The position numbers and the translations under genes are program-made. Below are positions 7,012 to 14,568 of a stretch of DNA of 64,000 nt, piece after piece. How positions within the stretch are numbered: the first letter of the stretch is position 1; each line of letters starts with the position of its first letter. Below the pieces are notes generated by a model. It saw only the letters and a list, made by a program, of their open reading frames with translations, ran no database searches and had not been told where the DNA came from. Source of the DNA: Streptantibioticus cattleyicolor NRRL 8057 = DSM 46488 (GTDB lineage: Bacteria; Actinomycetota; Actinomycetes; Streptomycetales; Streptomycetaceae); the NCBI RefSeq assembly GCF_000240165.1, contig NC_017586.1, positions 3,844,001-3,908,000 on the forward strand, given 5' to 3'.

Positions 7012-10000
7012 ATGCACACCGAGGACAAGCTCCGCGACTACCTCAAGCGGGTCAGCGCCGAACTGGAGAAGACCCGCAGGTCCCTGAAGGAGAGCGAGGA
7101 GCGCCACCGCGAGTCGGTCGCCGTCGTCGGCATGGCCTGCCGCTACCCGGGCGGGGTCACCTCGCCCGAGGAGCTGTGGGAGCTGGTGGCCGGCGGGACG
7201 GACGCGGTGGGGCCGTTCCCGGCGGACCGGGGGTGGGACCTGGCGGCGCTGGGCGACCCGGAGGGGCCGGACGCCTCGGCCACCGGCGAGGGCGGCTTCC
7301 TGCGGGACGCGGCCGGGTTCGACGCCGCGTTCTTCGCCATGTCGCCCAAGGAGGCGCTGGCCACCGATCCGCAGCAGCGGCTCTTCCTGGAGACGGCGTG
7401 GGAGGCGGTGGAACGCGCCGGGGTCGACCCGCGCACCCTGCGCGGCAGCCGCACCGGGGTCTTCGCCGGGGTGATGTACCACGACTACCCGGGCGGCAGC
7501 GCGGCCGGCAGCGTGGTCTCCGGCCGGGTCGCCTACGCCCTCGGCCTGGAGGGGCCCGCGGTCAGCGTGGACACCGCCTGCTCGTCGTCGCTGGTGGCGC
7601 TGCACGAGGCGGTGCACGCGCTGCGCCGGGGCGAGTGCTCGATGGCGCTGGCCGGCGGGGTGACGGTGATGGCCACCCCGGGCACCTTCGTGGAGTTCAG
7701 CCGGCAGCGCGGGCTCGCCCCGGACGGCCGCTGCAAGTCGTTCGCGGAGGAGGCCGACGGCACCGGATGGGCCGAGGGCGTCGGGGTGCTGGTGGTGGAA
7801 CGCCTCGCCGACGCGCGCCGCAACGGCCACCCGGTGCTCGCGGTGGTCCGCGGCAGCGCGGTCAACCAGGACGGCGCCTCCAACGGGCTCACCGCGCCCA
7901 GCGGTCCGGCCCAGCGGCGGGTCATCCGGGACGCGCTGCTGGACGCCGGGCTCACCACCGCGCAGGTGGACGTGGTGGAGGCGCACGGCACCGGCACCCG
8001 GCTCGGCGACCCCATCGAGGCGCAGGCGCTGCTGGCCACCTACGGCCAGGACCGGCCCGCCGGGCGGCCGTTGTGGCTGGGGTCCGTCAAGTCCAACTTC
8101 GGGCACAGCCAGGCCGCCGCCGGGGTGGCCGGCGTGATCAAGATGATCATGGCGATGCGGCACGCCACGCTCCCCGCCACGCTGCACGCCACCACGCCCA
8201 CCTCGCACGTCGACTGGTCGGCCGGGGACGTCCGGCTGATCACCGCGAACCGCCCGTGGCCGGCCGGGGACGCGCCGCGGCGGGCGGCGGTCTCCGCGTT
8301 CGGCGTCAGCGGCACCAACGCCCACGTGATCGTGGAGGAGGCCGGCCCCGCGCAGCCGCCCGCCGGGGCGCCGGAGGGCACCGCCCCGCTGCGCGGCGTA
8401 CCGCTGCCGTGGGTGCTCTCCGGCCGCACCCCGGCCGCGCTGCGCGCCCAGGCAGCCCGGCTGCGCGACCGCCTCGACCAGCGGCCCGCCGTACGCCCGC
8501 TGGACGTGGCCTACTCGCTGGCCACCACCCGTACCCCCTTCGAACACCGGGCGGTGCTCCTCGGCCGGAGCGAGGACCAACTTCGCGCCGCACTTGCCGA
8601 GTTGGCCGACCGGGACGAACCGGCCGGACCCGGGATCGTCACCGGTACGGCCCCCGCGTCCGGCGGCGGCCAGGCGGCCTTCGTGGTCGCGGCGGACGCC
8701 GGGGCTTCCGGGGACGCCACCGCAGCGGCCGGACTGCTGGAGCGGGCACCGGCGTTCGCCGCCCGGATCGCCGCGTGCGAGCGGGCCGTCGAACGGCAGG
8801 CCGGCTGGTCGCTCACCGCGGTGCTGCGCGGCGACCCCGGCGCCCCCGACCCGGCCCGTCCGGACGTCGCCCGGCTGGTGGCGTTGGCCCACGCGCTCGC
8901 CCTGGGCGACCTGTGGCGGGCGCACGGCGTCACCCCGGCCGCCCTGCTCGCCGCCGACCCGGTCTCGGTGGCGGTCGCCGAATGCCTGGCCGGCCGGATC
9001 TCGGTGCCCGACGCGGTGCGCGCGGTCGCCACCGAACGCCCGGTCCGCCCCGACCCGGGGATCCCCGGCCCGGCGGTGCACCGGGTGGCGGACGAGGCGA
9101 CGCTGCGTACGCTGCTGGGCCGGGACGTCACCGTGTTCGTGGCCGTCGGCTCCGGCACGGCGCTGCCGGAACGGGTCCGCGCCACGCTCGCCGCGACCGG
9201 CGGCACCGCGACCGTGGTCGCCCCCGCGCGCGACGGCGCCGACCCGGCCGCGCACTTCGCCACCGCGCTCGCCCAGGCGTTCACCGGCGGCGCCGTCCCC
9301 GACTGGCAGGCGGTCTTCACCGGCACCGGCGCCCGCCGGGTCGAACTGCCCACCTACGCCTTCCAGCACGAGCGGTACTGGCTCGCCGGGCCCTCCGGTG
9401 GCACCGGATCCGGCACCGCCGGACACCCGCTGGCGGGCGCGGCGCTGCCGCTCGCCGACACCGACGGGGTGCTGCTCACCGGCGGCCTGTCGCTCGCCAC
9501 CCACCCCTGGCTCGCCGACCACGCCGTGCGCGGCACCGTGCTGCTGCCCGGCACCGCGTTCGTGGAACTGGCGCTGCACGCCGGACGCGAGACCGGCTGC
9601 CCGCTGCTGGCCGAGCTGACCCTGGAGGCGCCGCTGGTGCTCGACGCGGACGGCGAGGTGACCCTCCAGGCGGCCGTGGGCGCCCCCGACGACCAGGGCC
9701 GCCGCCCGCTCACCGTGCACTCCCGGCCGGCCGGCGCCCCCGCCGCGCTGCCCTGGACCCGGCACGCCACCGGGCTGCTCGACCCCGCCGAACCCCCGGT
9801 GCCCGCCACCGCCCCGGCGTGGCCCCCCGCCGATGCCGAACCGCTGCGCCCCGAGGACGTCTACGCCGCCATGGACGCCGCCGGGCTCGGCTACGGCCCG
9901 GCGTTCCGCGCGGTACGCGGGGTGTGGCGGCGCGACGGCGAACTCCTCGCCGAGGTGGCGCTCACCGAGGAGGCGGGCGGCGCCGAGGGGTTCGCCCTCC

Positions 10001-13000: not shown

Positions 13001-14568
13001 CCCGTACCGCCTTCCGGCACCGTGCCGCCGTCGTGGTGCGCGACATCGGGGAGCTGCGCCGCGCGCTGGCCCGGATCGCCGCCGGGGACGAGGCGCCCGA
13101 GGTGCTGACCGGCACCGCCGACGGCGCCCCGCTCGACCTGTGCTTCACCGCGCACCACGGTGTGCGTCCGGTCGTCGGACGCGCCCTGTACCGCACGTTC
13201 CGCGTCTTCGCCGAAGCCTTCGACGAGGCGGCCGACCACCTCGACGCCCATCTCGACCGGCCGCTGCGCGACATCGTCTGGTACGAGCCCGAGCTGCTCG
13301 CCGAGCCCCGTTACGGCCACCCGGCGCTCTTCGCCGTCCAGGTCGCCGTCCTGCGGCTGCTGGAGCAGTGGGGGGTGCGCCCGGACCGGGTCACCGGTGA
13401 CGGGGCCGGGCTGCCGGCCGCCGTGCACGCGGCCGGACTGGTCCCGGTGGCCGACGCCGCCGCGCTGGCGGTGGCCCACGGCGCCCTGGCGGCCGGCGGC
13501 GACCCCGGGGAGTTCGAGCGGACGGTCGGGAAGGTCACGTTCGGCGAGCCCCGCGTGCCGGTGGTCCGCGCCGCCGACGGGGCCGTGGTCACCTCGGACC
13601 AGGCCGCCACGGCCGCGTTCTGGACGGCCGGCGCCGACCGTCCCGCGGCGCCCGCGCCCGGCCGCACCGTGCTCCACGCCGGGGCGTACGGGCTCTCCTG
13701 CACCGGACCGGACGGCGCCGCCGACCCCGAGCCGGCCGGACCGCCCGCCCCCACCGCCGAACTGCGCGCCGCCTTCCGCGCCCTGGCCCGCGCCCACATC
13801 CACGGCACCGGTGCCGACTGGGCCGCGGTGACCGAGGGCTGGGGCGGCGAACCGGTGGCGCTGCCCACGTACCCGTTCCGGAACGCCCTGGCCGAGGCGC
13901 CGACGGGCGGCCAACTCCCGGACGGGCTGGACGCGTTGGGGCTGCGCGGCGACGAGCCGCTGGAGGAGGCGCTGCCGGTGCTCACCGCGTGGTGGCGGAG
14001 CCGGACCGGTACGGCGGGCTGGTCGCCGCAGCCCGAGCCGTCCGCGCCGGCGTCGGCCGGCCGGTGGCTGGTGGCGGTGGCGCCGCCCGCCGCCGGCGAC
14101 GACGCCGGGGAGCTGGCCGAACCGCTGCTCGGCGCGCTGCTGCGGCACGGCGCCGAGGTGCTGCCGTTCACCGTGGACCCGGCGGACGGGGACGTGGCCG
14201 CGCACGCCGCGCGGCTGACCGCGCTGACCGGGGACCGGGGACCGCTGGCGGGCGTCCTGTCCTGCCTGGCCGCACGCCCTGGCACCGCCGCCGACGCCAC
14301 CACGCTGCTGACCGGTGCCGTACGCCAGGCCGGGGTGACCGCGCCGGTGTGGTCGGTGACCTGGGGCGCGGTGCCGGTGGAGCCCGGCGAGCGGGCCGAC
14401 GGACGCCAGGCGGCGCTGTGGGGCGGCGGCGGCTTCGTCGACCTGCCCCCGGCGCCGGACGAACGCGCCCGCGCCCGGCTGTGCGCGGTGCTGGCCACCG
14501 GTGACGCCCGGCACGCCTGGGCGGTGCGCGCCCGCGGGGTCCTCCGCCGCGACACCACCACCGGATGA
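7012..14568 (+). CDS. Modular PKS with one module carrying a dead AT and one terminal relic module
   Basis: The 2518-aa protein starts with a class-1 docking coiled coil ([11 protein letters not shown]). Module 1: KS with Cys 7579-7581 and His 7984-7986 and 8104-8106; a shortened AT (about 8405-9390) in which the nucleophile motif GHSxG reads AADPV (8950-8964); DH with [11 protein letters not shown]-type KR within the repeat; ACP with LGVGS (Ser 11752-11754). Module 2 is a relic: a KS of about 300 aa with Gly (12388-12390) for the Cys and no EAHGTGT or KSNxGH; an AT with GDGAG (13396-13410) for GHSxG; and a KR cut off after its structural half, before any NADP loop. No ACP or thioesterase follows. 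A GAGGAG lies 12 nt before the ATG. The AT-like regions look cis-AT in ancestry; extender loading probably comes in trans. Confidence 0.95.
10558..11396 (+). repeat. KR-coding direct repeat, copy 2
   Basis: Partner of 5344-6182. It starts at the same CTG GTG TTC junction and ends at the same GGCGG, after which the two genes diverge completely ([11 protein letters not shown] in copy 1, [11 protein letters not shown] here). The offset stays at 5214 bp throughout, so there are no indels between the copies. Confidence 0.93.

What the first reader, a model, noticed from the sequence alone, without database searches (positions are those of the whole stretch)
7012..14568. Assembly line whose acyltransferases have died: a cis-AT module converted to trans-AT use
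Seen: module 1 has an intact KS, DH, KR and ACP, but the AT region is shortened and GHSxG reads AADPV (8950-8964). The preceding module has no AT. Known: trans-AT synthases take extender units from discrete ATs, and two such proteins are encoded leftward (17308-20571, 21631-23592). Inferred: a cis-AT module was brought into, or evolved within, a trans-AT system and its own AT decayed. It looks like an intermediate in the cis-to-trans transition.
Basis: partly seen in the sequence, partly recalled or inferred. Interest (0 to 1): 0.8.

Follow-up and report, generated by a model that had tools for sequence, protein, structure and literature searches.

The report
Antibiotic enzyme with decayed loading domains
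The last protein of an antibiotic-making assembly line has lost the domain that loaded its own building block and carries a dead extra module at its end; related bacteria share these losses, which probably explain why this line makes a shorter relative of kirromycin.

Summary
P0001 (7012-14568) has a ruined AT in its first module: GQG lost, GHSQG replaced by AADPV (8950-8964), the stretch with the catalytic His deleted. KS, DH, KR and ACP keep their catalytic residues.

The cluster is an elfamycin assembly line, almost certainly that of Streptomyces cattleya (L-681,217). P0001 is its KirAVI, the only cis-AT protein of the kirromycin line. Of 10 KirAVI proteins compared, 5 keep both ATs and 5 have lost both. 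Of 9 genomes searched, the KirHI Dieckmann cyclase occurs in the 4 with intact KirAVI and in none of the 5 with decayed KirAVI; the amidase beside P0001 has orthologs in 4 of those 5.

Best reading: a methylmalonyl-type cis-AT was lost, probably once; the ACP is now charged in trans with malonyl by the adjacent KirCI-like protein; loss of the terminal module, KirB and KirHI ended the chain as a free acid. Trans-loading, malonyl and the product link are inferred. Cautions: a frame break in the preceding gene; the S. netropsis copy is a remnant. New variant of a known kind.

The parts
1..6933 (+). KirAV-like gene (starts upstream of the window; in-window part): ACP-KR-KS(trans type)-no AT-DH-KR-ACP with a C-terminal tail that looks like a docking region; the reading frame breaks once at the C run 5204-5210
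   Evidence: colinear with S. globosus AV
7012..8340 (+). P0001 docking helix and cis-AT-type KS1 with its catalytic residues
8341..8661 (+). KS-AT linker of module 1, retained
8662..9285 (+). dead AT1 remnant (AADPV at 8950-8964; stretch with catalytic His deleted)
9421..10269 (+). DH, catalytic His and Asp present
10270..11604 (+). KR, catalytic Tyr present; part of it nearly identical to the KR of the preceding module
11605..11874 (+). ACP1, phosphopantetheine Ser present
11935..12855 (+). KS2 vestige (DTACSSS -> DAGGTEA at 12379-12399; both His lost)
12856..13755 (+). AT2 linker and AT2 vestige (GHSVG -> GDGAG, catalytic His deleted)
13921..14565 (+). KR-like fragment of module 2; protein ends here, no ACP2
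14565..16019 (+). amidase overlapping the end of P0001; orthologs in 4 of 9 genomes (own included), all with decayed KirAVI; candidate release or tailoring enzyme (inference)
16081..17304 (-). cytochrome P450
17308..20571 (-). AT-AT-PfaD protein (KirCI-like); AT2 (GHSLGE, APFHS) is the candidate malonyl loader (inference)
20568..21968 (-). ORF holding a SAM methyltransferase (true start probably further in)
21631..23598 (-). free AT (KirCII-like, GHSMGE, VASHS) with an N-terminal vestigial KS
24510..25841 (+). cytochrome P450
26592..28250 (+). MFS efflux pump, only 28% identical to facT of S. globosus

Best explanation
P0001 is the KirAVI protein of an L-681,217-type elfamycin assembly line. 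In this branch of the family the methylmalonyl-type AT of its first module was destroyed, and the ACP is now charged in trans, most likely with malonyl by AT2 of the neighbouring KirCI-like protein. The second module, the beta-alanine NRPS (KirB) and the Dieckmann cyclase (KirHI) were lost as well, so the chain ends after module 1 as an unsaturated acid without the methyl branch and pyridone of kirromycin. Shown: the dead AT, the partner domains with intact residues, the shared decay, the missing KirHI. Inferred: trans-loading, malonyl as the unit, the release step and the product link.
For: AT1 lacks GQG, the Ser and the stretch with the catalytic His, while KS1, DH, KR and ACP residues stand. 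Gene order and sizes of the six PKS/NRPS genes match the S. globosus elfamycin cluster, as do AT-AT-PfaD, free AT, methyltransferase and P450s at 45-58% identity. AVI AT1 of 5 intact orthologs sits with YASHS-type cis-ATs and AVI AT2 with HAFHS-type. Decayed and intact KirAVI lie on two sides of a 100/100 branch on KS1-DH-KR-ACP columns. Four decayed proteins share one AT1 deletion and the fifth has a larger one over it. KirHI in 4 of 9 genomes, all with intact KirAVI; amidase in 4 of 9, all decayed. A review passage reports that the L-681217 cluster of S. cattleya lacks a Dieckmann cyclase (PMC4979870). [quoted passage not shown] EF-Tu has Thr at what I take for the published A375T site in 5 of 5 genomes with decayed KirAVI (allele in PMC8625390 passage).
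Against: The KirAV gene just upstream has one frame break at a run of C, 5204-5210: sequencing slip or real damage, not decided. No acylation data. The L-681,217 structure (recalled: 2,4,6-heptatrienoic acid end without methyl) could not be read in any held paper. On KS1 alone, with an outgroup, the decayed set is one group only at 65/63, so a single loss rests mainly on the shared deletion. The S. netropsis copy lies in a largely deleted locus, and S. sulphureus and S. xiaopingdaonensis are near copies.
Confidence: 0.75

Rival explanations
1. Module 1 of P0001 no longer elongates: without an AT its ACP is not charged, and the chain is released from it or passed over it, giving a product one ketide shorter.
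For: AT1 is dead.
Against: KS1, DH, KR and ACP keep the audited catalytic residues in 5 of 5 decayed proteins. KS1 is the most constrained region in the close pair (dN/dS 0.07). The recalled acid length of L-681,217 needs this module.
Confidence: 0.08
2. The ACP is charged in trans, but by the free KirCII-like AT (21631-23598) with a branched unit.
For: This AT has intact motifs and lies on the YASHS side of the AT tree (97/93).
Against: [quoted passage not shown] The recalled product has no branch there.
Confidence: 0.1
3. The cluster is dying; the AT loss is one sign of a pseudogene and nothing is made.
For: Frame break in KirAV; S. netropsis holds only a remnant at the same place; the terminal module is dead; dN/dS of every tail region is higher than that of KS1 in each of the four decayed-decayed pairs computed.
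Against: Long open KirAVI frames with intact module 1 residues in the other decayed genomes; low dN/dS of KS1; L-681217 is reported from S. cattleya.
Confidence: 0.07

Closest known systems
KirAVI of the kirromycin-type elfamycin lines
   Same: Same place in the line, N-terminal docking, KS-AT-DH-KR-ACP then a second KS-AT module; the S. globosus ortholog aligns end to end
   Different: Both ATs and KS2 are dead, the KR-like region is cut short and ACP2 is gone in P0001; KirHI is absent from the genome, KirB and panD from the 158 kb examined
L-681,217 cluster of Streptomyces cattleya
   Same: Almost certainly this very cluster; a review says it lacks a Dieckmann cyclase (PMC4979870 passage)
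   Different: The passage seen says nothing about the AT decay, the dead module or their spread in other species
AT-null DEBS modules complemented by trans-ATs (engineered)
   Same: A cis-AT module with its AT disabled, served by a free AT, including KirCII and the disorazole AT (PMC6164871 passages)
   Different: Those are laboratory constructs; here the loss is natural and shared by several species
KirCII discrete ethylmalonyl AT
   Same: P0005 is 54% identical to the S. globosus homolog over the aligned C-terminal part
   Different: P0005 still carries a decayed KS in front, as do the S. sulphureus and S. xiaopingdaonensis homologs

Membership tests
Elfamycin (kirromycin-type) cluster | Six colinear PKS/NRPS genes AI-AVI with an NRPS third and a cis-AT-derived sixth | tested here: met
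Elfamycin (kirromycin-type) cluster | KirCI (AT-AT-ER) and KirCII discrete ATs | tested here: met
Elfamycin (kirromycin-type) cluster | KirHI Dieckmann cyclase, KirB and aspartate decarboxylase for the pyridone | tested here: not met
   KirHI: no match at 1e-10 in the whole own genome. In the 158 kb examined: no KirHI or panD match at 1e-8, and KirB matches only the third (NRPS) gene at 33%. Expected for a pyridone-less member
Elfamycin (kirromycin-type) cluster | Product acts on EF-Tu | not testable with these tools
   Only indirect: Thr at the A375 site of EF-Tu and position beside tuf
L-681,217 cluster | Organism is S. cattleya | tested here: inconclusive
   Contig sizes 6,282,967 and 1,812,548 fit S. 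cattleya as recalled; a S. cattleya (NRRL 8057) record of 1,809,491 bases was seen
trans-AT module | KS of the trans-AT clade | tested here: not met
   P0001 KS1 lies in the cis-AT clade, 99/97
trans-AT module | Extender loaded by a discrete AT | not testable with these tools
   No biochemical data; AT1 dead and a free AT-AT protein present
cis-AT module | Functional AT in the module | tested here: not met
   (by catalytic residues)

The most novel reading that the evidence does not exclude
Loss of a methylmalonyl cis-AT, with takeover by a free malonyl AT, changed the antibiotic's structure in nature: the AT-null plus trans-AT swap that engineers make. The dead second module is kept as a translated, non-catalytic scaffold that the assembly line or its release enzyme (perhaps the amidase) still needs.
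Probability: 0.25. Interest if true: 0.8.

Novelty: new variant of a known kind. Interest (0 to 1): 0.6.

Why it matters
It offers a natural graded series (intact AT, dead AT in four loci, AT nearly erased in a fifth) of a cis-AT module passing, it seems, to trans service, with the intact state and the probable chemical consequence both at hand. It makes the question of how a cis-AT module survives the loss of its AT testable with a few proteins, and it would be a natural counterpart of what polyketide engineers try to do with AT-null modules.

Tried and rejected
A structure prediction of the AT1 region (window 8344-9411) without an alignment gave mean pLDDT 45.0 and pTM 0.35; it says nothing and no fold search was run on it.

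Whole-genome searches with P0005 at order or family level and with the whole of P0001 in 13 genomes gave no answer. Instead: 60 relatives (no other genome with P0005 at 1e-90, but in most of them only 20 candidates were scored), and 8 of the 13 candidate genomes. KirAVI of the genomes of L023, L025, L026, L027 and L086 was not looked at.

Placing the KS vestiges in the tree is unreliable: very long branches. In the same tree 3 of 23 KSs from the own cis-AT clusters, which I take for loading-module KSs, fall outside the cis clade. That P0005 arose from an AT of P0001 was considered and not supported: four KirCII ATs form their own 100/100 group apart from AVI AT1 and AT2.

Purifying selection on the dead tail is suggestive only. 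In S. sulphureus / S. xiaopingdaonensis, the five tail regions have dN/dS 0.23-0.66 against 0.39-0.44 for DH, KR and ACP. In more distant pairs the tail looks looser: S. cattleya / NBRC 110611 0.41-1.07, S. cattleya / S. sulphureus 0.54-1.10, S. cattleya / S. netropsis 0.57-0.83. The method is simple Nei-Gojobori without correction for GC bias. In DNA alignments of the tail, gaps that are multiples of three: 2 of 2 in the close pair, 18 of 26 in S. cattleya / NBRC 110611 (the second alignment is loose).

The window MFS pump had matches at 1e-150 in 2 of 20 genomes and was not pursued.

Full report
What is there. The ORF at 7012-14568 encodes 2518 aa. Pfam finds a docking region, KS, DH, KR and ACP above cut-off, and AT as partial matches. 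Of 43 AT matches in the own genome, those of this gene are the weakest (AT1) and third weakest (AT2), each over about a third of the profile. Against the S. globosus ortholog, module 1 aligns throughout except that AT1 has lost GQG, the GHSQG Ser and the stretch around YASHS. A Ser/His pair cannot exist in the usual place, since the stretch holding the His is absent. The second module, from 11935, has lost the KS Cys and both His, the AT2 Ser and His, the end of the KR-like region and the ACP.

What cluster it is. The window is G000:C2:3844001-3908000. Upstream stretches show the line beginning about 45.6 kb left of the window, after EF-Tu (tuf), a thioesterase and a LuxR-type regulator. The first PKS protein starts with a region that I take for LnmK-like from recall; Pfam names nothing there. 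The six PKS/NRPS genes match in order and size those of an elfamycin-type cluster on a S. globosus plasmid, in which PLSDB predicts facT, an elfamycin pump. The AT-AT-PfaD protein, free AT, methyltransferase, TetR and two P450s are 45-58% identical; the pump is only 28%. KirHI, panD and the crotonyl-CoA carboxylase gene have no match in the 158 kb examined, and KirB matches only the third (NRPS) gene, at 33%. Contig sizes of 6,282,967 and 1,812,548 fit S. cattleya as I recall it. A review passage says that the pyridinone-less elfamycin L-681217 cluster of S. cattleya lacks a Dieckmann cyclase homolog but has a conventional TE domain (PMC4979870). So the identity of the cluster is in print. I found no held paper on the AT decay (paper searches); the original papers on this cluster were not seen.

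Relatives. A scan with the free AT gave 76 loci; I picked 13 of 53% identity or more as candidates. Eight of these genomes were searched for KirAVI, and with P0001 and S. globosus 10 proteins were compared. Five are intact: S. globosus, M. rubida, S. kronopolitis, S. roseoverticillatus and S. viridosporus (the last cut off before ACP2). Five are decayed in AT1, KS2 and AT2: P0001, NBRC 110611, S. sulphureus, S. xiaopingdaonensis and S. netropsis. On KS1-DH-KR-ACP columns the two sets are split by a 100/100 branch (unrooted); on KS1 with an outgroup the intact set has 100/100 and the decayed set 65/63. Four decayed proteins share the AT1 deletion, the fifth has a larger one over it, and all five end in the same KR-like fragment. 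S. sulphureus and S. xiaopingdaonensis are near copies, so at most four lineages are independent.

Correlated gene content. KirHI was found in 4 of 9 genomes, the four with intact KirAVI, and in none of the five with decayed KirAVI at 1e-10 (one of the four has a second, weak match at 27%). The amidase next to P0001 has orthologs of 69-80% in 3 other genomes, all decayed, and no match at 1e-60 in S. netropsis or the 4 intact; the own genome has a further 38% paralog. KirB and panD were seen near the clusters of intact genomes and not in the stretches held for the other decayed ones, which is weaker than a whole-genome test.

Place beside tuf. In the own genome the line lies between tuf and rpsJ-rplC. 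In S. sulphureus the free AT stands next to the S10 operon, in NBRC 110611 with one P450 between (ribosomal genes read by eye), and tuf lies on the same contig beyond the PKS genes (the far part of the stretch was not read). In S. netropsis a remnant sits in the same place beside tuf and a thioesterase 59.5% alike, but most modules are gone. EF-Tu has Thr at the site I take for A375 in S. cattleya and in the 4 other decayed genomes, in 2 of 4 intact ones, and in 1 of 12 relatives; the seven divergent second copies of EF-Tu read all have Ala. A review passage ties A375T to kirromycin resistance (PMC8625390). This supports an EF-Tu-directed product; it does not prove one.

How it works. In kirromycin KirAVI is the only cis-AT PKS, with KirCI and KirCII serving the rest (PMC5818483, passages); a title in its reference list says that AT2 of KirCI loads malonyl. 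AVI AT1 of intact orthologs has YASHS and groups with YASHS cis-ATs; AT2 groups with HAFHS ATs. Methylmalonyl and malonyl as the meanings of these motifs are recalled. With AT1 dead and an AT-AT-PfaD protein encoded beside it, malonyl loading in trans is the simplest way to keep module 1 working. Recalled and not read here: kirromycin bears a methyl next to the pyridone ketone, and L-681,217 ends as an unbranched 2,4,6-heptatrienoic acid. If so, both the missing methyl and the missing pyridone follow from the decay seen in P0001.

Cautions. KirAV has a frame break at a C run. Trans-loading is not shown. The dead tail may be junk in slow decay or a kept scaffold; the numbers do not settle it, and those of the more distant pairs speak rather for relaxed constraint. 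The free AT keeps a decayed KS in S. cattleya, S. sulphureus and S. xiaopingdaonensis, a mirror image of P0001: there the KS died and the AT lived.

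Noticed in passing
window 21631-23598 (-); L035:9032-11104; L019:3499-5577: The free KirCII-like AT carries an N-terminal vestigial KS in S. cattleya, S. sulphureus and S. xiaopingdaonensis, absent in the NBRC 110611 and S. globosus homologs: a trans-AT that still shows its origin from a KS-AT pair.
   Followed up: partly
window 5321-6220 and the matching part of 9472-11840: The KR of the preceding module and the KR of P0001 are 84-100% identical in DNA per 100-base block over about 0.9 kb while flanking blocks are 50-74%: looks like recent gene conversion.
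   Followed up: partly
window 5204-5210: One-base frame break at a run of seven C in the KirAV-like gene; sequencing slip or real mutation.
   Followed up: no
S. netropsis, L118 and L113 (G067:C5:130241-146503): A shrunken remnant of the same kind of cluster between tuf and ribosomal genes: thioesterase, a KirAV-KirAVI fusion ORF of 3457 aa, and a PfaD fragment.
   Followed up: partly
upstream tuf (G000:C2:3790547-3791740): EF-Tu has Thr at the A375 site in 5 of 5 genomes with decayed KirAVI, 2 of 4 with intact KirAVI and 1 of 12 relatives.
   Followed up: yes
L035:9032-11104 and L019:3499-5577 (free ATs): The S. sulphureus and S. xiaopingdaonensis free ATs read GQSMGE instead of GHSMGE.
   Followed up: no
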